Assembly: GCA_021776655.1 (NCBI GenBank) | Contig: JAJFFK010000023.1 | Coordinates: 124,001-188,000 of the forward strand | Direction of reading: 5' to 3' | DNA: 64,000 nucleotides | Origin: Henriciella sp. | GTDB taxonomy: Bacteria > Pseudomonadota > Alphaproteobacteria > Caulobacterales > Hyphomonadaceae | Shown here: positions 38,189-60,030 of the stretch, one piece after another | Position numbering within the stretch: the first letter of the stretch is position 1 | Layout of the letters: every line of letters begins with the position of its first letter | Notes under the pieces: model-generated | The model's database searches: none | What the model was told of the DNA's origin: nothing | Seen by the model: the letters and a program-made list of their open reading frames with translations, nothing else | Program-made: the position numbers and the translations under genes

Positions 38189-39535
38189 ATGGATACGTCC
38201 GCGCGCCTGAACCTGCCCTTTCTTCTGCCCAATCAGGCACAAAAGCATGTGACGGTGAACGAAAGTCTGCAACGCCTCGATACTCTAGTGCAGTTATCGG
38301 TGATTTCAATGGTGCTGACTGCGCCGCCGCCAGCGAGTAGCGAAGGCGACATATACATCCTTCCTGCTGGTGTTCTCAGCGGCGCGTGGAGCGGGGCTAC
38401 AGGAGGGCAAATCGCCGCCCTGCAAGACGCAGCATGGTCCTACGTCACGCCCGGCGAGGGCTGGATCTGCTATGATCAAGAAACAGGCCAGTCGTTTCGG
38501 TTCCTGGCCGGCGTCTGGGTCGCCAGTACACCCGTCAACGGGGCGACTGAGCTCGGCATCAATACAAGCGCCGATCCGGTCAATCGATTGGCGGTCAAGT
38601 CAGATGCGGAATTGCTCAGTCATGATGACGTGACCCCTGGGTCAGGCAATGCCCGAAAAATCATCAATAAAGCTGACGCAGCAGCCACTGCCTCTACGGT
38701 GTTCCAGAGTGGGTTTACGGGACACGCCGAGATTGGATTACTCGGCAATAATGATCTCTCCTTTCAGGTCTCTCAGGATGGGATTTCACAGCTAACCTGC
38801 GCTCAATTCGATGCCGATACCGGCGCCGCAACCTTTCCAGGCGGCCAGTTACATCAAGCAAGCAGTGCCTTCACCCGACAAATCCTGCCAACACCTGGCG
38901 GCAATGGGGTCGATTCAATCTATCGTGTAGAAACACTTCGTGCCCAAAACCCCAGAAGTTACACAATCGCCTCCATCGCCGGCGATACAATCACGATGAC
39001 CATCGCCTCGGCTGATCAGATGATCAAAGCCAGCTATATGCAAGGGGTCGCCATGGTCCGCATATGGAACCTGTCCAAGTCACCAATTGAGCCCGCCTGG
39101 ATCATTAACTCTGTTGATACGTCATCGCTGCAAATGCGCACCTCTACCGAAATAAGTGGATGGCAGGTCGGGGACACGATCCAGTTTGGCGATCCAACCA
39201 GCGAGACGCCCAACCGCGTCATTGCGGTCGATGTCAGCCCAATGATGATTTCATTGTTCGGTACGGCCTTCTACCAATCAGGAGCGATTGTGAAGATGGC
39301 TGCCCTCGCTGGCAGCGGAGTTGAAGCTGGCATCGAAATATCGCCTGACGGCTTATCAGGGTCATTTGTGGGAACCCGAGGATATGCTGCACAATCTTCG
39401 CCCCAAGCACAATTCATTATCCCCAATAACACGCCATCGCCAGTCTCATCTTCAAATTTGCTCTTCATTCGAGAATTGGATCTTGGGGGAAATGTCGGGA
39501 TATCTCATGTCTCGATTAACGCGTTTCTGGTTTGA
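38189..39535 (+). CDS. DUF2793 phage-tail-like protein
   Basis: 448-residue protein whose first ~95 residues match DUF2793: RLNLPFLLPNQAQKHVTVNE, then EGDIYILPAGVLSGAWSG and AGVWV. This domain is found in prophage and gene-transfer-agent tail regions and in stand-alone alphaproteobacterial genes. The remaining ~300 residues are rich in S, T, G, Q and beta-type sequence without cysteines, like a tail-fibre or adhesin shaft. GGAGAGAC precedes ATG. No signal peptide. It stands at the left border of the polysaccharide locus without other phage genes. Confidence 0.75.
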   Translation: MDTSARLNLPFLLPNQAQKHVTVNESLQRLDTLVQLSVISMVLTAPPPASSEGDIYILPAGVLSGAWSGATGGQIAALQDAAWSYVTPGEGWICYDQETGQSFRFLAGVWVASTPVNGATELGINTSADPVNRLAVKSDAELLSHDDVTPGSGNARKIINKADAAATASTVFQSGFTGHAEIGLLGNNDLSFQVSQDGISQLTCAQFDADTGAATFPGGQLHQASSAFTRQILPTPGGNGVDSIYRVETLRAQNPRSYTIASIAGDTITMTIASADQMIKASYMQGVAMVRIWNLSKSPIEPAWIINSVDTSSLQMRTSTEISGWQVGDTIQFGDPTSETPNRVIAVDVSPMMISLFGTAFYQSGAIVKMAALAGSGVEAGIEISPDGLSGSFVGTRGYAAQSSPQAQFIIPNNTPSPVSSSNLLFIRELDLGGNVGISHVSINAFLV

Positions 39536-46083: not shown

Positions 46084-46275
46084 GTACTCTTCCCGTTTTT
46101 CGGCCGCCTACGACAAGCTTTGACTAAATCCAGCGACTAATTCAATCCACCAGCCTCACTTATATTCTCTCGATAATAGTGAAAAATCCCAACCTTATTC
46201 ACGCGCAACATATATGCCTCTTGAAAAAACAGTCGAGCCGCTTAATGCAATTCATGTGACACGATGGAGAGTTTG

Positions 46276-47436
46276 ATGTCTAAGGTTTTAGTGCTTGGTG
46301 GTGATGGATTCTGTGGTTGGCCGACGGCACTACACTTATCCAGACGGGGTCATGATGTGACCATTGTGGATAATCTATCCAGGCGAAAGATTGACATCGA
46401 ACTGGAAGTCGAAAGTCTGACCCCGATACGACCTCTCGGCGAACGTTTACTTGCCTGGAAGGACGTTTCTGGCAAGACAATCAAGTTTGAAAACTTCACT
46501 GTCGGCGAAAACTACCATCGCCTTCTAACATTGATTACAGAAGAAAAACCAGACGCCATAATTCACTTCGCCGAACAGCGGGCTGCCCCTTATTCAATGA
46601 AGTCCAGTTGGCACAAGCGGTATACAGTCTCTAATAATCTTAATGCCACTAATGACGTTCTTGCCGCTATTGTTGAGTCAGGTTTGGATACTCATCTTAT
46701 TCACCTGGGGACAATGGGCGTATACGGGTATGGTACTGCCGGAATGAAAATCCCTGAAGGTTATCTCAAGGTGCATATTGAGACTGAGCACGGGCTCACT
46801 GAACAAGAAATCCTGTACCCAGCAAACCCTGGCTCCATTTATCACATGACTAAGACTCAGGACCAGCTCTTCTTTCACTTCTACAATAAGAATGACGGCG
46901 TAAAAATTACTGACCTGCATCAAGGTATAGTTTGGGGCACCCAAACGGAAGAAACGCAGATGGATGAGCGCTTGATGAACCGATTCGATTACGATGGAGA
47001 CTATGGAACAGTTCTAAATCGGTTTGTAATGCAAGCTGCCGTAAACTATCCATTGACAGTCCACGGGACTGGTGGCCAAACGCGGGCCTTTATTCATATA
47101 CAGGATACCTGCCGCTGCATCGAGTTGGCGCTCAACTCACCACCTAAAGCAGGCTCACGTGTGAATATACTTAATCAAATGACCGAGACCCATCGGGTGC
47201 GAGAACTTGCCGAACTGATTGCCGAACAAACAGGTGCCGAGATCGCATTCATAGACAATCCGCGTAACGAGGCGGACGAGAATGAACTTCATGTCGAGAA
47301 TGATCGGTTTCTAGGGATGGGCTTAAAGCCAATTACGCTTAGCGAGGGCTTGCTTGGAGAAGTAAAAGAGATCGCGGAACGCTATTCCGATAGATGTGAT
47401 AAGACAAAAATTCCGTGCGTCTCGACTTGGTCATAG
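46276..47436 (+). CDS. sqdB: UDP-sulfoquinovose synthase SqdB
   Basis: SDR enzyme that joins sulfite to UDP-glucose to give UDP-sulfoquinovose, the donor for sulfolipid and, in a few organisms, sulfoquinovose-containing glycans. 386 residues. [19 protein letters not shown] and [20 protein letters not shown] are family-specific. The catalytic trio is T146 (LGTMGVYG), Y189 and K193 (IYHMTK), matching T145/Y182/K186 of plant SQD1. ATG 46276 has GGAG upstream; an ATG at 46264 is an alternative. The next gene makes sulfite. No SqdX/SqdC/SqdD sulfolipid glycosyltransferase was recognised nearby. Confidence 0.92.
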
Positions 47437-47478
47437 ACGCATCGGACGCGAAAAATTGTAGAGGCTAGGTATAAAACC

Positions 47479-48219
47479 GTGCAGACAGGCTTACGACAAG
47501 ATCTTTCTGAAAAGGCTTCGGCTTTGAACGAAAAGCTTGCATCGGAGTCTGCTGAAGACATTTTGGATCATTGCTGCAATCAGGTTTTCTCAGGCCGGAT
47601 AGGTTTGATTTCGTCATTTGGTGCCGAATCAGCCGTCCTGCTATCATTGGCGATGAAGGTACGATCAGATTTGCCGGTTATTTTCCTCGACACTCACAAG
47701 CATTTTTCCGAGACTTTAGAATATGTCTCCACCTTACGCGACAGTCTGTCTATTGAAACGTTGACAATTACCCGCCCACGGGGGGCAGAGATCGAAGCTT
47801 TAGATGCACACGGTTTGCTGCACCAAACAGACTCAGATTCCTGCTGCCACATAAGAAAAACCCTTCCTATGGTGCGAGCCTTAAACCCTTACGACGCGTG
47901 GATTACAGGGCGAAAACGCTTTCAAACCGCAAATCGAGAACAGCTAGAGATTGTGGAAGTGCAGGAGGGATGGTTGAAGATCAACCCTTTAGCAGCTTGG
48001 GCCGCAAGTGACGTATTCGCATACGCCAAGGAACTCAACTTGCCACCACATCCTCTCGTGGCCCACGGATTTCGCTCCATTGGTTGTGAACCATGTACAG
48101 TCGCTGTCTCAGCTGATGGTGATTCACGCGCGGGACGCTGGCAGGACCAGGATAAAACAGAATGTGGAATACATATTGTAGATGGGAAAGTCATACGTGA
48201 AAGGAAATCGTCTAGCTAA
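47479..48219 (+). CDS. cysH: Iron-sulfur APS/PAPS reductase (CysH)
   Basis: Reduces adenylyl-sulfate or PAPS to sulfite. 246 residues from a GTG start. The nucleotide-binding loop is ISSFGAESAVLL; the [4Fe-4S] cysteines are C122-C123 (DSCCHIRK) and C203/C206 (GCEPC), which point to the APS-reductase-like form; the catalytic cysteine is C229 in KTECGIH. It lies 42 bp after sqdB, which needs sulfite, so this copy is probably dedicated to UDP-sulfoquinovose synthesis rather than to cysteine. Substrate preference (APS or PAPS) is not certain. Confidence 0.92.
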   Translation: MQTGLRQDLSEKASALNEKLASESAEDILDHCCNQVFSGRIGLISSFGAESAVLLSLAMKVRSDLPVIFLDTHKHFSETLEYVSTLRDSLSIETLTITRPRGAEIEALDAHGLLHQTDSDSCCHIRKTLPMVRALNPYDAWITGRKRFQTANREQLEIVEVQEGWLKINPLAAWAASDVFAYAKELNLPPHPLVAHGFRSIGCEPCTVAVSADGDSRAGRWQDQDKTECGIHIVDGKVIRERKSSS

Positions 48220-51693: not shown

Positions 51694-52458
51694 TTAATTC
51701 ATGACTCGATTGAGAGGAAACCAATAATCAAAATCAACGCCACCCGAATTCTGTGCCGTGCGGAGCGGCGACAGGCTCGGCGTTCGCTCCAATATACTCT
51801 CATGCACGAAAATTAGATCCACCTGCCATAACGCATCATCGTAATAACAAAGCTCGGTAATATCAAAAAGCTTTAATCCAAGCTCTCGAAGCATGCTAAT
51901 ACGTTGAAATATAGTTGATACGGGCGCCTCAATAGCAACAATTGCGGCCTTAGATAGCACCCTTCCACCGCCTCTAATAATCTTCTCTTCAACGCCATCA
52001 ACATCAATTTTGACGATGTAGGTAAACGGCTTGAGTGCACCTTCGGGAAAGGTTTCATCTAAGGTGGACACTGTAACTGAATCAATTCCGAGTAGGTTTT
52101 GCTTTTCGTCATCTCGTTCTGGAAGAATTTGAGTATGTGTAACATTGCCGGAATGGTTGTTCGACAGCTTATGAAGAAACATCACATTGGATGTATCCGA
52201 CAGCGCTATTGGGTATAGGCGATGGCGGATATCTCGTTGCTCATAATTACGCAAAAGCATACTATGGTATTCAGTTGCAGGTTCAATAAGGTGATGAAAG
52301 CTCTCAGCGGCAGCTGCAACAAGGTAGTCAGTCAAACCCTGAACGCCGACGTCTATTACATCGTCAAATAATTCAGGTAAATCTCTTTTTATTCGCATCA
52401 AGCTGTCCACTGCGCGCGGGCGACGAAGCGATATTGTGTTACTAAGTCTAGATTCCAA
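51694..52458 (-). CDS. FkbM-family methyltransferase
   Basis: 254-residue SAM-dependent methyltransferase of the FkbM type, usually O-methylating sugars or glycans. VIDVGVQGLTDYL is the (atypical) SAM motif I, HLIEPATEYHSML follows, and YIVKIDVDGVEEKIIRGG is the family's diagnostic DVDG/DVEG segment. The frame starts at a TTG (52458) with AGGTGA upstream; an internal ATG at 52398 is an alternative. AT-rich. Confidence 0.82.
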   Translation of the reverse strand: MESRLSNTISLRRPRAVDSLMRIKRDLPELFDDVIDVGVQGLTDYLVAAAAESFHHLIEPATEYHSMLLRNYEQRDIRHRLYPIALSDTSNVMFLHKLSNNHSGNVTHTQILPERDDEKQNLLGIDSVTVSTLDETFPEGALKPFTYIVKIDVDGVEEKIIRGGGRVLSKAAIVAIEAPVSTIFQRISMLRELGLKLFDITELCYYDDALWQVDLIFVHESILERTPSLSPLRTAQNSGGVDFDYWFPLNRVMN

Positions 52459-52560: not shown

Positions 52561-53511
52561 TTACACACTCGGCGCAACCCCTGAATACCCCAAAACAGAG
52601 CATAATGGTAAATATGATGGCGCACGCTCAATCTCAAGCTGAATTTCGGGGCCTCCTGACCGACGCTGATGAATCATGATATTCTGATTATCTCGTCGGC
52701 CGCTATCGCCTGAAAATCTGAAGCTTCCATAAGCCTGCTCGAAACCATCAAAATAGTCTAAGTGTAATGCAGTGCATATTCTTTTCATGCACTTTTTCGG
52801 ATCAATTACTAAATCCTCATATTTGTACAAATCCACGTCTTTGTAATCATTTAAAAACACAAGGTACCGCCTACAATATTCTTCGAAACTTGGCGGTTCG
52901 AAATAGGCATTCCATCCTAATGTAATCATGGAAAGCCAGCTATCGATGGGATCGCGAACGGTGACAATCGATCGAATTGAAAATCTTGATCTGACGAGTT
53001 CACATAAAGTGGGCGTTTCAGCAACGATCTCTCCCGTCAGGTAATGGCTGTGAGAGTGATCTCTGAGGACGATATTACGACCGATCATCCATTGCTCTTC
53101 GCGTAGAACTTCCAGATCACCCAAGAATAGTTTCGCCACCAGGTCTGAGGAGATATCCCTATCCCCCTGACGCACAAGAGAGATTATGTCTGTAGGCGTG
53201 AAGGTCGAGCTTCCACTATTGACCCGCGGCATTGTGCTGTGAAGATCGATCTCATTCAGTAATAAGACATTTGCCATGGAGGCAATACATTTGGCAAATA
53301 ATGTACCTCCGGTACAGGAAAAATGATGCACAGTCCTAATTGCCTCATCGTCCAGCAAATTAGATGTTTGTGCCAGATTCAGTGCAGTATTGATATGCGC
53401 GTCAACGCGCCTTTGAGCAACTTTTCGCAAGCCCTTTCCGGTACGCGCCTCGGTCGCCAAACCCAAAGCGTTGTCAACATGATACGCCGCCAAGATCGAC
53501 CGCTTATTCAT
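52561..53511 (-). CDS. Sulfotransferase-family protein
   Basis: 316-residue protein. The PAPS loop is VHHFSCTGGTLFAKCIASM near residue 55, and the second phosphate site is RSIVTVRDPIDSWLSMI near 190. YKYEDLVIDPKKCMKRIC follows, all in the order of sulfotransferases. Likely target is the exported glycan. The ATG at 53511 overlaps the upstream gene's stop (ATGAATAA); two more ATG codons lie just upstream. It forms a tight pair with the coiled-coil gene before it. Confidence 0.8.
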   Translation of the reverse strand: MNKRSILAAYHVDNALGLATEARTGKGLRKVAQRRVDAHINTALNLAQTSNLLDDEAIRTVHHFSCTGGTLFAKCIASMANVLLLNEIDLHSTMPRVNSGSSTFTPTDIISLVRQGDRDISSDLVAKLFLGDLEVLREEQWMIGRNIVLRDHSHSHYLTGEIVAETPTLCELVRSRFSIRSIVTVRDPIDSWLSMITLGWNAYFEPPSFEEYCRRYLVFLNDYKDVDLYKYEDLVIDPKKCMKRICTALHLDYFDGFEQAYGSFRFSGDSGRRDNQNIMIHQRRSGGPEIQLEIERAPSYLPLCSVLGYSGVAPSV

Positions 53512-54508
53512 CATCATCACCGGTCTTCTTGCCCACAGTCTTGGTGGAATCATCGCTCTCGGTGAGGGCTATTTGCGCCGCCAGCAATTGCGCTTCAATC
53601 TTTTTGATAATGTCGGCTTGGCCCTTGTATGATTTTGCCAGTGACTTGTACCGAGTGCGTAAGTCCTGCAGATTATTATCACTCAACTGTTGTTGGCTTT
53701 TAGCGTCCGTTACGCGTTGGATCGTCTCCTCGCGGCGGGAGACTTCCTCGGCAAGTTCATCGTCAGATCGGTCTTTCTGGAGTTGAAGCCTGTCAATTTC
53801 GGCTTGTCGCTTGGCCAGCTCCTTATCTGACCTACTATCCAAGATGCTCAAATTTTCCTGAAGGGTTGTTTTCCAATCCTTGACATAAACGGTCCGGGCT
53901 ATTGCCGGATGGCGGGTTGAAAGCTGCGCATAGGCGATGAAGCTATAGCTGAACATGCGTGCGTCTTGAATGTCCTTACTGTACTGGCAAAGCGTTGCGT
54001 TCTCGCCAACCTCAAGCACCGAATGTGCAATGACAACATCAACACTTTGCAGGCACTGATCCGCACCCTTCATAATCTCAGGTGCCGCCACAGTATTCAA
54101 GAACATCCAGTTTGCACAAATCCCCTGTGCAGAGACGAACGCATCCAAGGTCGAGGTTTGAACGGGACACTCATCGATTGTTGCGATATTCTGCCAGATC
54201 GATTGCAGGTTCTCCGGTTTGATCAGACCGGATTCGGTTGGGAGGCTGGCTGTGTAATATTGGCTTTTGCATCCATCCGGTGACAGCACAACCTGGTTCA
54301 CACTCAGATTATCAGATTGCTGCAAATTGAATTTTTCAACCCGCGCTTCGTCGCCATCAGCGAAGGTTAGCACAACCGCGCCCAAGTCCGAATAGAACTG
54401 CACCTGCGCGTCAAAACAGGCACCAATCTGTAACAGACTGGTGATCGGGAACAGCACAGCCAGGTCAGCCAGGAGGTTTTTCTCGTCTGGCGTTGGCAAT
54501 TGGCTCAT
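53504..54508 (-). CDS. FkbM-like domain plus long coiled coil
   Basis: 334-residue protein. Residues ~10-215 resemble a degenerate FkbM/SAM fold: SLLQIGACFDAQVQFYSDLG, LTFADGDEARVEKF, WMFLNTVAAPEIMKGADQCL. The C-part ~219-318 is a continuous charged heptad stretch (KELAKRQAEIDRLQLQKDRS onward) expected to form a coiled coil, then a short acidic tail. The SAM-binding glycine motif is weak, so catalysis is uncertain. Overlaps the downstream sulfotransferase gene. Divergent from the exporter operon that starts at 54731. Confidence 0.65.
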   Translation of the reverse strand: MSQLPTPDEKNLLADLAVLFPITSLLQIGACFDAQVQFYSDLGAVVLTFADGDEARVEKFNLQQSDNLSVNQVVLSPDGCKSQYYTASLPTESGLIKPENLQSIWQNIATIDECPVQTSTLDAFVSAQGICANWMFLNTVAAPEIMKGADQCLQSVDVVIAHSVLEVGENATLCQYSKDIQDARMFSYSFIAYAQLSTRHPAIARTVYVKDWKTTLQENLSILDSRSDKELAKRQAEIDRLQLQKDRSDDELAEEVSRREETIQRVTDAKSQQQLSDNNLQDLRTRYKSLAKSYKGQADIIKKIEAQLLAAQIALTESDDSTKTVGKKTGDDDE

Positions 54509-54678
54509 TGTCTACTTCCGCTTGGTATTCCTGATAAACTCAACCGAGCTAATAAGACCGCTATTGCGCCTCATTCAGCACGTTCTGCATTGTCGGTTCC
54601 TTTAGCCATGTCAACCATCCGCCCCGCGACAAGGTGCGTCGACTCTAGAACAGTTAAAAGAGTAGACCCTGCTGATAT

Positions 54679-54719
54679 CCAAGGCTAGTTAGGGGCCTCT
54701 AAGCGTAGAATAGCCTTGG
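54679..54719. promoter_or_regulatory. 9-bp inverted repeat before the exporter operon
   Basis: CCAAGGCTA (54679-54687) and TAGCCTTGG (54711-54719) are perfect reverse complements, 23 bases apart, ending 11 bp before ATG 54731. It could be an operator or a leader hairpin that controls the coiled-coil/ABC-exporter operon. Confidence 0.45.
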
Positions 54720-54730
54720 GACGAAACAGT

Positions 54731-56266
54731 ATGACAATCCTTTTGACATGCGGCCTGCAACGAACCTGGTGCGAGTTTGTGCAGGACCGACTGTCCAGTA
54801 TGGGCATTCAGGACCCAATCGAGGCCGCGAAAACCGCGTTCACACCGCACATGCTAACCAAGAAGATGTGCGCGGCCCACAAACTTTCACTCACGTCCAG
54901 CAGCGACATAGATCAAGCAGCCCCCGGCAAGGCCTGGCAAATAGCAGCCGCTGACATATTTATGGCAAATGCTGAGAACGGCACATGGGGATGGTCAGAC
55001 CCGCGAAACATCTACTTTCTTGAATTTTGGCGTGACTTCGATCCGCTTTGTAAGTTCGTGCTGGTTTATGGCTCGCCCGCCCAAAGCCTCGCCTGCAGTT
55101 TAGCGACAGAAGATTTTCAAGCGGACGATATCCAAGAGCACCTCAGCCAATGGGTCAGCTATCACGAGCAATTGCTACGCTTCTATCAGGCCAACCGCGA
55201 CCACAGCCTTTTGATCAAGATCGACAAGTTTGAGGACACAGCCGCCGATGTAACCGAACTTCTGGCGAAACAATTGGACCTCGAACCGCGCCTTCTGAAT
55301 GATAGCGCAATGCGCGAGATATCACCCATTTTGGCGCTGATCGCTGACAAATTACTCGCCGCCAACGATCTTGAACAGGCCCTTTACACGGAGCTGGAAA
55401 GCTCAGCCGACCTTCCCGGCAATGAGCTGGAAGACAACACCGCCATCATGCCGCAACACGCCTACAAGGAGTTTCTGGCCGCGCGAGTGACAGCTGATTC
55501 AGATCAACAGAAATCTTCTGAAATCGAGAATTTGCAAACTCAGATCAATCAATTGACTCAAAACCTGTCGGACGCTGAGACCGCCGCATCCGACAATAAC
55601 CTGACCGATGACCTGACAAATCAGAATGAACTTCTGATGCTGCAACTGCATCAAGTCCAAGAAGAATTAGAGCTGTATTTCGGGAAGTATCAGGACCTGA
55701 AGACCAAGTCTGACACAGCCAAAGAGCCTGCTTCGGAAGTCAAAAAAGCCACCAACATCGCGGCAAGTTCAACGCCCATCGGTACTCCTTCAGATACTGT
55801 GGTCGACATGCGCTCTTATGTGAACGGCACAGGCTGGCATAGCCCGGAACAAGCCGGGCGCTGGGCCGGGCCAGACCGGATCAGTACGCTCAAATTGCCG
55901 GCCCTGGGGCAAGATCGCCACCAAATTGAAATCAAGATCGTGGATGCCATGAGCCTTGATATTGCCAAGAATGTCAGCCTCTCGCTTGATGGAAAACCTC
56001 TGACTGCCACAACTCAAATCCTCAGCGAACTGACCGGAACGCTCGCCCCGCTTCGCCGGATACGCGCGAACCTTCAAAAAGCCGATAAGCCATTTCCGAT
56101 GAAGGTGGTTGCGACCCTACCAACAGATGCCGACAGAGATAGTGAAGGCGAACACACACTTACCATCACTTGCCCGGAGACCGTTTCGCCGTCGCAGTTT
56201 GGCCAACCCGATACGCGCGCATTGTCGGTGTGCATCGAGTGCATCAAACTGATCAGGGTTACCTGA
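54731..56266 (+). CDS. Sulfotransferase-like domain - coiled coil - C-terminal beta domain
   Basis: 511-residue three-part protein. Residues 1-~230 follow the sulfotransferase layout (SDPRNIYFLEFWRDFDPLCKF, VLVYGSPAQSLACSL, WVSYHEQLLRFYQ), but the usual G-x-x-x-S-G-T phosphate loop is replaced by CGLQRTWCEF, so activity is uncertain. About 255-325 are coiled coil with NELLMLQLHQVQEELELYFG, a string I recall from other polysaccharide-locus proteins. About 358-511 form a beta-type domain (GTGWHSPEQAGRWAGPD...) that may bind glycan. The stop overlaps the ABC permease start by one base, tying it to export. ATG 54731 is preferred to TTG 54716. Confidence 0.65.
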   Translation: MTILLTCGLQRTWCEFVQDRLSSMGIQDPIEAAKTAFTPHMLTKKMCAAHKLSLTSSSDIDQAAPGKAWQIAAADIFMANAENGTWGWSDPRNIYFLEFWRDFDPLCKFVLVYGSPAQSLACSLATEDFQADDIQEHLSQWVSYHEQLLRFYQANRDHSLLIKIDKFEDTAADVTELLAKQLDLEPRLLNDSAMREISPILALIADKLLAANDLEQALYTELESSADLPGNELEDNTAIMPQHAYKEFLAARVTADSDQQKSSEIENLQTQINQLTQNLSDAETAASDNNLTDDLTNQNELLMLQLHQVQEELELYFGKYQDLKTKSDTAKEPASEVKKATNIAASSTPIGTPSDTVVDMRSYVNGTGWHSPEQAGRWAGPDRISTLKLPALGQDRHQIEIKIVDAMSLDIAKNVSLSLDGKPLTATTQILSELTGTLAPLRRIRANLQKADKPFPMKVVATLPTDADRDSEGEHTLTITCPETVSPSQFGQPDTRALSVCIECIKLIRVT

Positions 56267-57114
56267 TGGCAGATTCTGGTGCCCAGGAAGATTACAATTT
56301 GCATGAGGCTGTGACCGTTTATGAGCTGCGGCTCGGAACCGCTATCCGGGACATCACCGAGGGGCTGGCTATGTGGCGGGTCTGGATTGCCCTGTCATGG
56401 CATGAGTTTTCGAGCACCTACCGGCGCTCCCTGCTTGGCATAATGTGGGTCGTCCTGTCATTTGCTGGTTTTGTGTTTGTCAAAATCCTGATCTTCTCAT
56501 CCCTGCTGCAAACAGACAGCAACGGGTATTACGATACCTATCTGGTTCTGGGGTTTTTCATCTGGATGTATTTGCAGCAATCCATCAGCGCATCGCCTGA
56601 TGTATTTACCGCGGCAAAAGGGTGGATTAGAAGTGAGCCGCTACCCTTCTCTCTTTATATCTGGAAAAGCGTGATGCGGGAATTCTATAATCTCGCTCTC
56701 ACCTCAATCGTTGTTGTCATTGCTATCCTATATCTTGGTACACCACTGAAGAATGGTCTGCTCTATAGCTTGCTTGGCATCGCGTTCTTGTTGCTGAATG
56801 CATTCTCGATAAAACTTCTGCTTGGGGTTGTCAGCGCGCGGGTCAGAGACATTTCACATATGGTCAAGGCGATCATGATGCCGATGATGTTCCTGACCCC
56901 AATCTTCTGGATGCCATCTCAAATCGGCGATCTCATAAAGTATCTTTGGTGGAATCCAATGTATCATTATATCGAGATTTTCCGGGCCCCTTTGCTGGAA
57001 GGCGGCTTTCCAACCGCAAGCTGGATATATGTTGGAACCTTGTATTTGATCATGACAAGTCTGGGATTCTTGTCTTTCGCCCGATTCCGCCAACGTATCG
57101 TCTTCTGGTTCTAA
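56266..57114 (+). CDS. ABC-2-type polysaccharide export permease (Wzm/KpsM-like)
   Basis: 282-residue inner-membrane permease with six hydrophobic segments, expected to carry a lipid-linked polysaccharide across the inner membrane. The motif WHEFSSTYRRSLLGIMW before span 1 and MMFLTPIFWMPSQIGD, WNPMYHYIEIFRAPLLEG in the second half are typical of the family. The ATG (56266) shares its A with the preceding TGA. Followed after 4 bp by the ATPase gene. Confidence 0.9.
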   Translation: MADSGAQEDYNLHEAVTVYELRLGTAIRDITEGLAMWRVWIALSWHEFSSTYRRSLLGIMWVVLSFAGFVFVKILIFSSLLQTDSNGYYDTYLVLGFFIWMYLQQSISASPDVFTAAKGWIRSEPLPFSLYIWKSVMREFYNLALTSIVVVIAILYLGTPLKNGLLYSLLGIAFLLLNAFSIKLLLGVVSARVRDISHMVKAIMMPMMFLTPIFWMPSQIGDLIKYLWWNPMYHYIEIFRAPLLEGGFPTASWIYVGTLYLIMTSLGFLSFARFRQRIVFWF

Positions 57115-57118
57115 TAAC

Positions 57119-57847
57119 ATGGCTGATATCATCGCGACTGATCTGTGCGTACATTACCCCTTGACTGATGCGCCAAGCAACAGTGTGCGCAGCACACCAC
57201 CGCCTGAAAACCGCGTCGAGGTTGGCAATAAGAGCTATATTCTGGCCTTGCGAAACCTCAACTTTCACATCAAAAAGGGCCAGCGTGTTGGCCTCATTGG
57301 CCGCAATGGATCAGGGAAATCCACACTCCTGAGAGTCCTTGGTGGCATCTATGCGCCAACCGGAGGAATGCTCCAGACGAAGGGTAAAATTTCGTCCTTG
57401 TTCAACCTGAACCTTGGCATTCAGCCGGATATTTCGGGTCTCGAGAACATCGTTATCCGTGGCTTGGTCAAAGGCTGGTCGCGTAAACAGATACGCGAGA
57501 AAATGCCTGAAATAATCGATTTCAGCGAGCTTGAAAATGTCATTGATCTTCCGATACGCACCTATTCTGATGGCATGCGAATGCGGTTACTTTTTGCGAT
57601 TGCCACATCTTTCTCCCCGGAGATTCTTCTTCTGGATGAATGGATTGGCGCCGGTGATACAAACTTCCAAACCAAGGCCGCCAAGCGAATGAACAGCCTC
57701 GTCGAACGGGCTGGGATCACTGTGATCGCCAGCCACAATCGTAACCTGCTTAGAAAAGTCTGCGACCTGGGCATGTGGCTGGATGCCGGACGCATGCGCG
57801 CGTTTGGGCCGATCGACCAGGTTTACGAGCGAATGGATGGCGGTTGA
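57119..57847 (+). CDS. Polysaccharide export ABC ATPase (Wzt/KpsT-like, short form)
   Basis: 242-residue ATPase. Walker A GLIGRNGSGKST; LFNLNLGIQPDISGLENI, a signature of this subfamily; signature motif YSDGMRMRLLFAIA; Walker B EILLLDEWIGAGD; switch histidine ASHNRN. It lacks the ~150-residue C-terminal carbohydrate-binding domain that long Wzt proteins use to recognise finished chains, so export would be of the KpsT type or rely on another recognition protein. Partner of the permease just upstream. Confidence 0.92.
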   Translation: MADIIATDLCVHYPLTDAPSNSVRSTPPPENRVEVGNKSYILALRNLNFHIKKGQRVGLIGRNGSGKSTLLRVLGGIYAPTGGMLQTKGKISSLFNLNLGIQPDISGLENIVIRGLVKGWSRKQIREKMPEIIDFSELENVIDLPIRTYSDGMRMRLLFAIATSFSPEILLLDEWIGAGDTNFQTKAAKRMNSLVERAGITVIASHNRNLLRKVCDLGMWLDAGRMRAFGPIDQVYERMDGG

Positions 57848-57858
57848 TTGAACACGGC

Positions 57859-60030
57859 CTATGGCTCGATGAGCGCCGAAAATGCTGTTATAAGGTGATA
57901 TAGAATGCTGGCGGGTATCGCGGACACGCTGGCTTCTCCAGACCGGTCTGTCTCATCGAGCCAACCACCATCTGGTCCCCAGGTGAGGTATTTGTCCATA
58001 ATCGCTCTGAAACGGCTGTCATTTGAACCTGAGGCCGACACGCCAGGATGCAATAGATGTGCGCGGAACATTTCGAGTTGCGGCCATAGACGCCGCCCGT
58101 CATCTGCCGGATCGCCGCTTAATCTTGCTGTATTCAGAGCAAATCCACTCGCGGCATCCAGACCACTTTCATCTGCGCGGCGGATCAGTCGTCGACGCCA
58201 GCTAATCGTATCGTGACCGGTCAAGCGCTCATAATATGCCAGCAAATTCGCCCATTCATAATGATGACCCGGCTCAAAAACAGCCTCTTCGGAGGCCTGC
58301 AAATGTGTCCAGTCTGACTTAAATGTCTCACCCAGAAGATCACATTCAGGACGAAAGAACCTGGCCTCAAATAGCTGAACCACGTCAGTCGCAATTTTCA
58401 GAGCGCGGGCCTCGCCCGTTGCCGCATGTAGGGCCAACATCGCCTCAAGCATATGCATATGCGGGTTGGCCCGGCGCGGCGAAGCGCCAGAGAGGTTTTC
58501 AAGCCATCCGCCATATTGTGGATCTTTCAGCTCGGCCTCAATGAAATTAATCGCGTCGTGTGCAAGTTTCAGTGCAGTTTCATTCCCGGTCGCCTTGTAC
58601 GCCGCTGCACCGGCCAGAATGATAAATGCATGATCATAGAGATCCCGCTCCTCATCGACGATTTGCCCATTTTCATCCGCAACATGTATCCAGCCACCCT
58701 CGCGGTGGCGTAGCTGCGTGTCGAGATATTCGACACCCTTTGTCACCAGATATTCTGCCACAGATCGGTTTGGCCACCCCAGCTCTATACTGCGCGCAAA
58801 ACTGTAAACTTGCCGGGCCTGAACGCGAACACGCCGGTGAGCGACCGTATCGGCAACGCCGTCCAGGTCAAGTTGCTCGACAAATCCGCCACGCTCGCCA
58901 TCCCAGGCGCGCTGCCCCCAGACATCAAAGGCCGTCCATAGCCACGTCCGGGCTTGGTCGATCGTATCCGAAGATACGCCAATCCGGTCGCGATGCCCCT
59001 GTACCAGTTTGCCCAACGTCTTGACCGATTTGTGAGCCCCCATGGGCGCGACCATCACCGTATCGCCGGTTGCCACAATGATCAGATCACTCACGCCACT
59101 AACCGCCAGGACTGGCCCGGTCGATTTGGCATAAACGCCTTTGGTTTCAACCTGCACTGTCGGCCCCACACTCACAGATTGGCCTTCAGTTTCCGAGAAC
59201 AGATCCAGCAATGCCTGATAATCGCCAACATCACTCCAGCCCATTTCGAGCGGGACGACCTGGACATTTTCAGCCCGCTCCATAATCGCGTAATCAATTG
59301 AAATATCTGGTGCTTGCTTGAACGCGTCTGCGGCAAGCTTGATGGGATCATCTCTGTTTTGACCAAGCGCCGCGCGGACAGGCGGCAGAATATCTACGGC
59401 ATGCGCCTCCAACGCCGCCAGCATCACTCCAGCCTGGAACAGGAATATGCCAGCATTCCAATAATAATTTCCGTCATCCAGATAAGACTGGGCCGCAGCC
59501 AAAGGCGGTTTTTCGACGAAAGCCTCAACCTTCAAAATATCCGCGCCAGCTGGCGGTTGCGCCTTGATATACCCGTAACCCGTGGCGGGGAAAGACGGTT
59601 GAATTCCGAACGTGACCATCGCCCCGTCCTGCGCCGCCTTCGCACCGGTCGCAATCGCCCTCTGAAACGCATCTACATCCTTGATACTGTGGTCGGCTGA
59701 CAGGATCAGCAACAGATCATCAGGGTCCATTACCAGACAAGCGGCGGCGATTGCCGGGGCAGAGTTGCGGCCAAATGGTTCCAGGATCAGCCGAGCGCTG
59801 GGAACGGCCTGCTGTAATAATGAGTGGTGTTTAAGAGACCCGACCACAACTGCTTGCGCAAATTCCAGCCCAGCAACTCGGCTTCTGGAAAACCGATCAG
59901 CCGTTTCTGCAATCATGGACTTGTCAGACGTCAAAGCCAGGAACTGCTTCGGGTGCTGCGGTGTCGACAGAGGCCAGAGCCGCGTGCCCGCGCCACCACA
60001 CAAGATAACCGGGTGTATGAGGTCTGCCAT
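57859..60030 (-). CDS. Mannose-1-phosphate guanylyltransferase fused to AGE-family epimerase/isomerase
   Basis: 723-residue fusion. Residues 1-~345 are ManC-like: VILCGGAGTRLWPLSTPQHPKQ, FVEKPPLAAA, EMGWSDVGDY, making GDP-mannose from mannose 1-phosphate and GTP. About 360-723 are an (alpha/alpha)6-barrel of the N-acylglucosamine 2-epimerase/cellobiose epimerase/YihS family: QVYSFARSIELGW, HMHMLEAMLALHAATG, GHHYEWANLLAYY. This half replaces the cupin-type phosphomannose isomerase usually fused to ManC and may supply mannose 6-phosphate from fructose 6-phosphate. Product feeds Gmd/Fcl. Convergent with the Wzt-like gene. Confidence 0.88.
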   Translation of the reverse strand: MADLIHPVILCGGAGTRLWPLSTPQHPKQFLALTSDKSMIAETADRFSRSRVAGLEFAQAVVVGSLKHHSLLQQAVPSARLILEPFGRNSAPAIAAACLVMDPDDLLLILSADHSIKDVDAFQRAIATGAKAAQDGAMVTFGIQPSFPATGYGYIKAQPPAGADILKVEAFVEKPPLAAAQSYLDDGNYYWNAGIFLFQAGVMLAALEAHAVDILPPVRAALGQNRDDPIKLAADAFKQAPDISIDYAIMERAENVQVVPLEMGWSDVGDYQALLDLFSETEGQSVSVGPTVQVETKGVYAKSTGPVLAVSGVSDLIIVATGDTVMVAPMGAHKSVKTLGKLVQGHRDRIGVSSDTIDQARTWLWTAFDVWGQRAWDGERGGFVEQLDLDGVADTVAHRRVRVQARQVYSFARSIELGWPNRSVAEYLVTKGVEYLDTQLRHREGGWIHVADENGQIVDEERDLYDHAFIILAGAAAYKATGNETALKLAHDAINFIEAELKDPQYGGWLENLSGASPRRANPHMHMLEAMLALHAATGEARALKIATDVVQLFEARFFRPECDLLGETFKSDWTHLQASEEAVFEPGHHYEWANLLAYYERLTGHDTISWRRRLIRRADESGLDAASGFALNTARLSGDPADDGRRLWPQLEMFRAHLLHPGVSASGSNDSRFRAIMDKYLTWGPDGGWLDETDRSGEASVSAIPASILYHLITAFSALIEP

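What the first reader, a model, noticed from the sequence alone, without database searches (positions are those of the whole stretch)
53504..57847. Possible coiled-coil ruler/terminator module beside a Wzt lacking its carbohydrate-binding domain
Two divergent genes next to the exporter encode modification-enzyme-like domains fused to long coiled coils: FkbM-like + coiled coil (53504-54508) and sulfotransferase-like + coiled coil + beta domain (54731-56266, overlapping the permease start). In E. coli O9a, WbdD (kinase/methyltransferase + coiled-coil ruler) ends the chain and the Wzt C-domain reads that end. Here Wzt has no such domain, while a beta domain is attached to the coiled-coil protein. 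Chain length and export recognition may be solved with a new arrangement based on sulfation.
Basis: inference. Interest (0 to 1): 0.68.

Follow-up and report, generated by a model that had tools for sequence, protein, structure and literature searches.

The report
Split coiled-coil scaffold beside polysaccharide exporter
Two paired proteins, each a worn-down enzyme head on a long helical rod and one of them ending in a sugar-binding-like domain, sit beside a sugar-chain exporter that lacks its own sugar-reading domain; relatives of the pair occur in other bacteria, which suggests a split version of the known machinery that finishes and hands over surface polysaccharides.

Summary
Gene A (53504-54508, -) is a methyltransferase-fold head plus a 110-residue helix. 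Gene B (54731-56266, +) is a sulfotransferase-fold head, about 95 residues of coiled coil and a beta domain whose nearest solved folds are CBM35 sugar-binding modules. B's stop overlaps the permease start by one base; Wzt (242 aa) has no C-terminal domain.

The interpretation needs changing. B's head lacks the PAPS-binding residues in 34 of 34 aligned relatives, and A's head has lost its SAM glycine motif in this clade. Both look like scaffolds; an intact sulfotransferase is the next gene (52561-53553). B and A are a conserved pair: 35 of 45 B rows have A within 1 kb, and the 17 exporter ATPases found within 6 kb are all short. In the family, beta domain and Wzt reading domain did not co-occur (0 of 6 genomes; P 0.04, weak).

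Most likely a split relative of the WbdD/O7 terminators, with the sugar-binding module on the rod protein instead of Wzt. Ruler function, terminal sulfation and binding are inferred. Matched rod lengths fail phylogenetic control. New variant of a known kind.

The parts
53504..54508 (-). Protein A, 334 aa: methyltransferase (FkbM-like) Rossmann head 1-211, coiled-coil helix 212-321, low-confidence tail
   Evidence: AF2 pLDDT 88.6; FkbM 2py6 Z 12.6, rmsd 3.3 over 167 residues, tRNA methyltransferases Z 13; no Pfam or NCBIfam family; SAM GxG lost in this clade
54731..56266 (+). Protein B, 511 aa: pseudo-sulfotransferase head 1-233, coiled coil 234-330 containing QLHQVQEELELYF near its end, beta domain 354-511
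   Evidence: AF2 pLDDT 85.4; TPST1 5wri Z 15.9, rmsd 3.6, 208 aligned; PAPS-binding residues missing
55790..56263 (+). C-terminal beta domain of B (residues 354-511), CBM35-like
   Evidence: Foldseek hits 4qb2, 2w1w, 2w47, 2vzp (CBM35) and 7ehg, E 6e-4 to 6e-3, TM by target 0.52-0.59; five invariant columns (W, E, W, D, R) in 19 aligned members; DUF7024 weakly in 2 of 19
52561..53553 (-). Protein C: sulfotransferase with both PAPS motifs intact (SCTGGT, VRDP..S), ORF overlapping the end of A
   Evidence: Sulfotransfer_3 E 4e-4, under its curated cut-off; motifs kept in 6 of 6 orthologues; next to A in the window, four other family genomes and the Robiginitomaculum locus
56266..57114 (+). Wzm, ABC-2 permease, start overlaps B's stop by one base
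   Evidence: ABC2_membrane 56.6 bits; galactan Wzm model 152 of 380 bits
57119..57847 (+). Wzt, 242 aa ATPase without C-terminal carbohydrate-binding domain
   Evidence: ABC_tran; galactan Wzt model 256 of 400 bits; no Wzt_C in the genome
54509..54730 (.). Intergenic region between the divergent genes A and B, presumably two promoters
   Evidence: sequence; promoters not analysed
51694..52458 (-). Ordinary FkbM methyltransferase downstream of C
   Evidence: PF05050 30.1 bits over cut-off 22.7; TIGR01444 54.3 over 37.7

Best explanation
A and B are the scaffold half of a split chain-finishing complex for a surface polysaccharide made in the cytoplasm and exported by Wzm-Wzt. Their degenerate enzyme heads and coiled coils hold the complex together (A and B probably pair with each other). 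The intact sulfotransferase C, and perhaps the FkbM methyltransferase beside it, does the chemistry, most likely a sulfate at or near the growing end. The CBM35-like domain on B binds the finished chain and brings it to a Wzm-Wzt that has no reading domain of its own. Shown here (by sequence and prediction): folds, coiled coils, loss of active-site motifs in A and B, intact motifs in C, conserved A-B pairing, linkage of the beta domain to CBD-less exporters, absence of Wzt_C. Inferred: A-B contact, ruler action, site of sulfation, sugar binding, delivery to the exporter.
For: Pair conservation: in 105 family genomes A and full-length B occur in the same five (own, G016, G019, G024, G055) and keep the order C-A divergent from B-wzm-wzt. 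Among B-head ORFs in the loci examined, 35 of 45 have A within 1 kb (34 of 44 without one duplicate genome). A and B head distances mirror each other, r 0.65 against a permutation maximum of 0.23, as expected for co-inheritance. Beta domain: of 7 strong hits in 398 order genomes 6 (own, G016, G019, G023, G055, G191) lie within a few kb of wzm/wzt; two further weak hits were not examined. G023 keeps the beta domain just upstream of wzm but on another head, and G191 has it as a small separate ORF. All 17 Wzt/KpsT-type ATPases found within 6 kb of B are 214-288 aa, while frames with Wzt_C in the family are mostly over 400 aa. Wzt_C occurs in 42 of 105 family genomes and in 0 of the 6 known to have the beta domain (P 0.042). 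In 5 of 7 sibling Wzt_C loci examined a protein of 902-2320 aa with a coil-like stretch stands within about 6 kb of wzt, which resembles WbdD or WbbB systems. A separately expressed CBD restores transport by CBD-truncated WzmWzt in vivo (PMC9445017, passages), so a CBD can act in trans. The Klebsiella O7 terminator carries a CBM beside its coiled coil (PMC11231755, section 11 part 1). An APS kinase is present, so PAPS can be made.
Against: Rod lengths of A and B correlate in raw data (Spearman 0.61, n 29) but not after phylogenetic contrasts (r 0.20, p 0.15), so pairing by rod is unproven. Exclusion of Wzt_C is weak (P 0.042; 0.147 at the curated cut-off; 0.072 in the genus), not independent of ancestry, and the whole family was not searched with the beta-domain profile. 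Only 21 of 45 B rows have the beta domain and 13 of 45 have C within 6 kb, so neither CBM nor sulfation is universal. G115 has A, B, C but no wzm/wzt in the 19.5 kb fetched. Ten of 45 B rows lack A within 1 kb, some at contig ends; G566 has a B-head ORF with no A in 19 kb. B is rare: 3 of 385 class genomes matched, one of them this genome. The CBM35 match comes from the whole-protein model, not from the domain alone.
Confidence: 0.45

Rival explanations
1. Export works as in Klebsiella O2a: no end cap is read, synthesis and export are coupled, and chain length follows stoichiometry. A, B and C are only a scaffold for decorating the chain (sulfation and other substituents) along its length.
For: Closest curated models of Wzm and Wzt are the galactan exporter pair, below cut-off; that transporter lacks a CBM and couples extension to export (PMC11231755, passages). 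C lies within 6 kb of only 13 of 45 B rows, so its product cannot be a universal cap. Sulfated capsules exported by ABC transporters, with sulfotransferase genes in the cluster, are described in marine Vibrio and Cobetia (PMC11641403, PMC11766843, passages).
Against: Does not explain why a CBM-like domain is kept next to the exporter even when its partner head is swapped or missing (G023, G191), nor the conserved coiled coils, which in the Klebsiella O-antigen systems reviewed mark chain termination (PMC11231755, passages).
Confidence: 0.3
2. A and B organise glycosyltransferases (a polymerase platform) in ABC-exported capsules and O antigens in general, and the beta domain is an anchor for the growing chain rather than an export signal.
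For: In one Methylococcaceae and one Chlorobiaceae locus a GT4 gene directly precedes B, in the first behind a Wzz-domain gene and an ABC permease and ATPase. The coil-end motif QVQEELE also occurs on proteins without a detected B head.
Against: In the window no glycosyltransferase is directly adjacent to A or B, and the order B-wzm-wzt is kept in five family genomes.
Confidence: 0.2
3. One reading: A and B are active modifying enzymes (methyltransferase and sulfotransferase) fused to rulers, ending the chain themselves.
For: Folds match; most of the A family aligned keeps the SAM GxG (24 of 28), so A may be active elsewhere; 16 of 34 B keep an SG pair in the first loop.
Against: 0 of 34 B proteins keep the Lys of KDPR (two of them have a gap there), the Arg of RHP at the aligned position (two have an Arg one place later) or SG(T/S) in the first loop; A in this clade lacks GxG.
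Confidence: 0.05

Closest known systems
WbdD of E. coli O9a with CBD-bearing Wzt
   Same: Enzyme-fold head on a coiled coil, acting with an ABC exporter of lipid-linked polysaccharide (PMC3482155, passages)
   Different: WbdD is an active kinase and methyltransferase in one chain, read by a CBD on Wzt; here the heads are degenerate, the likely enzyme is a separate sulfotransferase, Wzt has no CBD and the coil protein has a CBM-like domain
ORF6 terminator of Klebsiella O7
   Same: Terminator protein with a CBM-like domain next to the coiled coil (PMC11231755, section 11 part 1)
   Different: CBM (Ig-like) lies before the coil and glycosyltransferases follow it; the heads are active. Whether O7 Wzt has a CBD was not checked here
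Klebsiella O1/O2 galactan exporter Wzm-Wzt
   Same: Closest curated models; transporter without CBM (PMC11231755)
   Different: No coiled-coil scaffold or CBM protein is described for it in the passages seen
E. coli group 3 capsule clusters with putative methyltransferases bearing coiled coils (PMC13171606, one passage)
   Same: Methyltransferase-like proteins with coils of varying length in ABC-exported capsule loci
   Different: Sequence relation to A was not tested; no B-like partner is mentioned in the passage

Membership tests
WbdD-type chain terminator | Long coiled coil attached to an enzyme-fold head | tested here: met
   AF2 models and periodicity
WbdD-type chain terminator | Catalytically competent head on the coil protein | tested here: not met
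   PAPS motifs missing in B, SAM GxG missing in A of this clade; by motif only, activity not assayed
WbdD-type chain terminator | Cap read by a CBD on Wzt | tested here: not met
   Wzt 242 aa; no PF14524 match at E up to 0.001 in the genome
WbdD-type chain terminator | Coil length sets chain length; chain end carries the modification | not testable with these tools
   needs polysaccharide analysis
Sulfotransferase (B head) | Sulfotransferase fold | tested here: met
   TPST1 Z 15.9, rmsd 3.6, 208 residues
Sulfotransferase (B head) | PAPS 5' loop (SGT) and 3' Arg | tested here: not met
   0 of 34 rows with SG(T/S), or with Lys or Arg at the aligned sites; canonical relatives have RSGTS, KDPR, RHP or RDP
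FkbM methyltransferase (A head) | Fold and SAM glycine motif | tested here: inconclusive
   fold matches 2py6 Z 12.6; GxG in 24 of 28 relatives, absent in window A and its three closest; no Pfam FkbM hit
CBM35 (beta domain of B) | CBM35 fold | tested here: inconclusive
   Foldseek hits E 1.5e-3 to 6e-3 from the full model; no CBM35 Pfam match in any of 19 members at E up to 1
Wzt_C (PF14524) | Sequence match to the profile | tested here: not met
   0 of 19 beta domains match at E up to 1
Galactan-type CBD-less Wzm-Wzt | Curated score of NF050108 and NF050109 | tested here: not met
   256 of 400 and 152 of 380 bits: related, below cut-off

The most novel reading that the evidence does not exclude
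An undescribed, phylogenetically broad two-protein platform (pseudo-sulfotransferase rod plus methyltransferase-fold rod) finishes and presents ABC-exported polysaccharides, with the carbohydrate-reading module moved from Wzt to the rod protein, so that end recognition is done in trans and can be re-used with different enzymes.
Probability: 0.3. Interest if true: 0.78.

Novelty: new variant of a known kind. Interest (0 to 1): 0.58.

Why it matters
Some ABC exporters of capsules and O antigens have no reading domain, and how a finished chain is recognised there is in general not settled (my judgement). A conserved scaffold pair that carries a sugar-binding-like module beside such exporters gives a concrete, testable candidate, and would show that ruler, enzyme and reader can be separate, exchangeable parts.

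Tried and rejected
Matched coil lengths of A and B as proof of pairing: raw correlation only, gone after phylogenetic contrasts. Sulfotransferase activity of B and methyltransferase activity of A here: rejected on motif loss. Family look-ups of A and B in Pfam, NCBIfam and PHROGs: nothing over a curated cut-off; one PHROG of unknown function at E 2e-4 over B's coil region. Sequence search of the beta domain against PDB: one match, E 0.017, chance-like; of the B family: tyrosylprotein sulfotransferase only at E 0.3 to 0.4 and unrelated coils above it. Proteins with the coil-end motif but no B head, six scanned: Pfam found no enzyme domain. Wzt loci in G007, G010, G022 and G028 (44-52% identical Wzt): no A, B or beta domain in the stretches fetched, but the contigs of three end 0.5 to 3 kb beyond wzm. 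Wzt_C loci: seven were fetched out of the family's hits, all from the genus. L148 showed no clear coil protein near wzt (only a cut 182 aa ORF at the edge scored high), and in L149 my Wzt model found no ATPase, so 5 of 7 support the contrast; the 902 aa protein in L145 is cut by the end of the stretch, and only three of the five large proteins were scanned with Pfam. The coil score used there is an unnormalised heuristic of mine. In L040 the A ORF starts upstream of its likely start; one search used a shorter one. In seven paper searches no title, abstract start or passage that I saw describes the A-B pair; I read no paper whole, and most subscription papers are not held. Absence of Wzt CBD structures from the 50 Foldseek rows shown proves nothing.
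Full report
What is there. The window's genus holds assemblies named Henriciella (the contigs of G016, G024 and G019 recur by length under that name; same genus as the window). It is a polysaccharide island with Kdo synthesis (KdsA 34336, KdsB 37208), GDP-fucose genes (gmd 44965, fcl 43982), rhamnose genes, glycosyltransferases and ManC. The two genes of the finding are confirmed at their coordinates. A (53504-54508, minus) and B (54731-56266, plus) diverge from a 222 bp region. B runs into wzm with a TGATG overlap, then wzt. On the other side the ORF of A overlaps that of C, a sulfotransferase (52561-53553), followed by an ordinary FkbM methyltransferase (51694-52458).

Structure. A is a Rossmann methyltransferase-fold head plus a single 110-residue helix (FkbM 2py6 Z 12.6 with the longest aligned stretch, 167, of the 50 rows shown). 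B is a sulfotransferase-fold head (TPST1, Z 15.9, rmsd 3.6, 208 aligned), helices 234-288 and 293-330, a low-confidence linker, and a beta domain. The Foldseek matches to small CBM35 modules can only concern that beta domain (4qb2 E 1.5e-3, 2w1w 2.4e-3, 2w47 2.9e-3; also 7ehg 6e-4). It is a whole-model search, so the CBM35 likeness is not settled. By sequence the domain is unassigned; 2 of 19 members touch DUF7024, best E 0.0018. The coils show heptad-like periodicity in 33 of 39 A and 33 of 36 B sequences tested; for the window's own fixed segments it is borderline.

Active sites. Canonical sulfotransferases that the B head profile finds in the same order carry RSGTS, FKDPR and FRHP or FRDP. 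At the aligned places B has no Lys (0 of 34, two being gaps) and no Arg (0 of 34; in L071 and L073 an Arg sits one place later), and no SG(T/S) in the first 25 residues (0 of 34; 16 keep SG). The window's loop reads GLQRTWC. So B is best called a pseudo-sulfotransferase. A keeps GxG at the SAM loop in 24 of 28 relatives but not in the window and its three nearest, so A looks inactive in this clade and may be active elsewhere. C keeps SC(T/S)GGT and VR(D/H/N)P with the later Ser in 6 of 6 orthologues. The genome has an APS kinase in a 635-residue frame, so PAPS should be available.

Conservation. Among 105 family genomes, full-length B and A occur in the same five, the window's own included, each time with C beside A and wzm-wzt beside B. 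A scan of named genomes gave 52 loci, with records named Henriciella, Robiginitomaculum, Methylococcaceae, Accumulibacter, Gilvimarinus, Halomonas and Chlorobiaceae among others. In these plus L020, L032 and the window, 45 ORFs had a B head: 35 with A within 1 kb, 21 with the beta domain, 13 with C within 6 kb, and 17 with a Wzt- or KpsT-type ATPase within 6 kb, all 214-288 aa. L032 repeats the genome of L045. The pair is sparse: 3 of 385 class genomes matched the B profile, one being this genome, and the B-head ORF of G566 has no A in 19 kb. In a Methylococcaceae locus the order is Wzz-domain (KpsE-like) gene, ABC permease, ABC ATPase, GT4, B, A. Thus the pair also occurs with what look like capsule exporters. 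The coil of B carries a strongly conserved QLHQVQEELE-YF motif near its end, a likely docking site (inference).

The beta domain follows the exporter. In 398 order genomes 7 have a strong hit and 2 a weak one; 6 of the 7 lie near wzm/wzt, the seventh (G115) has none in 19.5 kb. In G023 it is fused to an MptE-like head with a hydrophobic stretch instead of the B head, still directly upstream of wzm, and that genome has no A; in G191 it is a 188 aa ORF about 1 kb from wzm. In the family, Wzt_C was found in 42 of 105 genomes (28 over the curated cut-off) but in none of the six known to have the beta domain. The chance of that is 0.042, 0.147 if only hits over the cut-off count, and 0.072 in the genus, without correction for ancestry. 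In 5 of 7 sibling Wzt_C loci fetched, a protein of 902-2320 aa with a coil-like stretch stands within about 6 kb of wzt; of three scanned, one starts with a methyltransferase domain and two carry glycosyltransferase domains. So within one family two solutions appear to exist: reader on Wzt with a large coil protein, or no reader on Wzt with B and A.

Mechanism. Known background: WbdD and its kin cap the chain, the coiled coil separates capping from polymerisation, and the CBD of Wzt reads the cap (PMC3482155 passages; PMC11231755 passages). In O7 a CBM-like domain lies next to the coil of the terminator, and in 2024 no other terminator was known to have one (PMC11231755, section 11 part 1). 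A CBD works in trans (PMC9445017 passages). The strongest alternative is O2a-like export without reading, with A, B and C decorating the chain; the transporter's closest curated relatives point there, and sulfated ABC-exported capsules are known in marine bacteria (PMC11641403, PMC11766843, passages). I put these at 0.45 and 0.3.

What failed. The idea that A and B have matched rod lengths looked good in raw data (Spearman 0.61, n 29) and failed the contrast test (r 0.20, p 0.15). Neither CBM nor sulfotransferase is universal in the wider family, so the core function is the A-B scaffold, and a sulfation-based cap is at most the local version.

Novelty. In seven paper searches nothing that I saw, listings and passages only, describes the pair. 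Coil-bearing putative methyltransferases in E. coli group 3 capsule clusters are mentioned in print (PMC13171606, one passage), so coils in such loci are not new. I file it as a new variant of a known kind.

Noticed in passing
window 46264-48219: A distant UDP-sulfoquinovose-synthase-like gene (333 of 575 bits) is followed by a PAPS reductase (255.9 bits over cut-off 154), a pairing that could supply sulfite for a sulfonated sugar.
   Followed up: partly
window 57859-60030: ManC-like mannose-1-phosphate guanylyltransferase with a mannose isomerase- or epimerase-like second half, 723 aa; conserved beside wzt in four other genomes of the genus.
   Followed up: no
L021:7940-9622: Beta domain of B on an MptE-like head with a hydrophobic stretch, just upstream of wzm, in place of B; no A in that genome.
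   Followed up: partly
L033:9055-9621: Beta domain in a small separate ORF about 1 kb from wzm, on the other strand.
   Followed up: partly
L052:9860-12898, L062:10001-12400: Long B proteins whose C-terminal part is a different region of roughly 300 residues in place of the beta domain; no domain match there for L062.
   Followed up: no
L077, L080, L081, L083, L088, L090: The coil-end motif QVQEELE occurs on proteins without a detected B head, including a cyanobacterium, suggesting a shared docking motif.
   Followed up: partly
window 38189-39535: A DUF2793 protein with homologues in sibling polysaccharide islands that carry Wzt_C.
   Followed up: no
L074:4343-6656: Two overlapping ORFs with B heads, the second with the coil motif before its head.
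   Followed up: no
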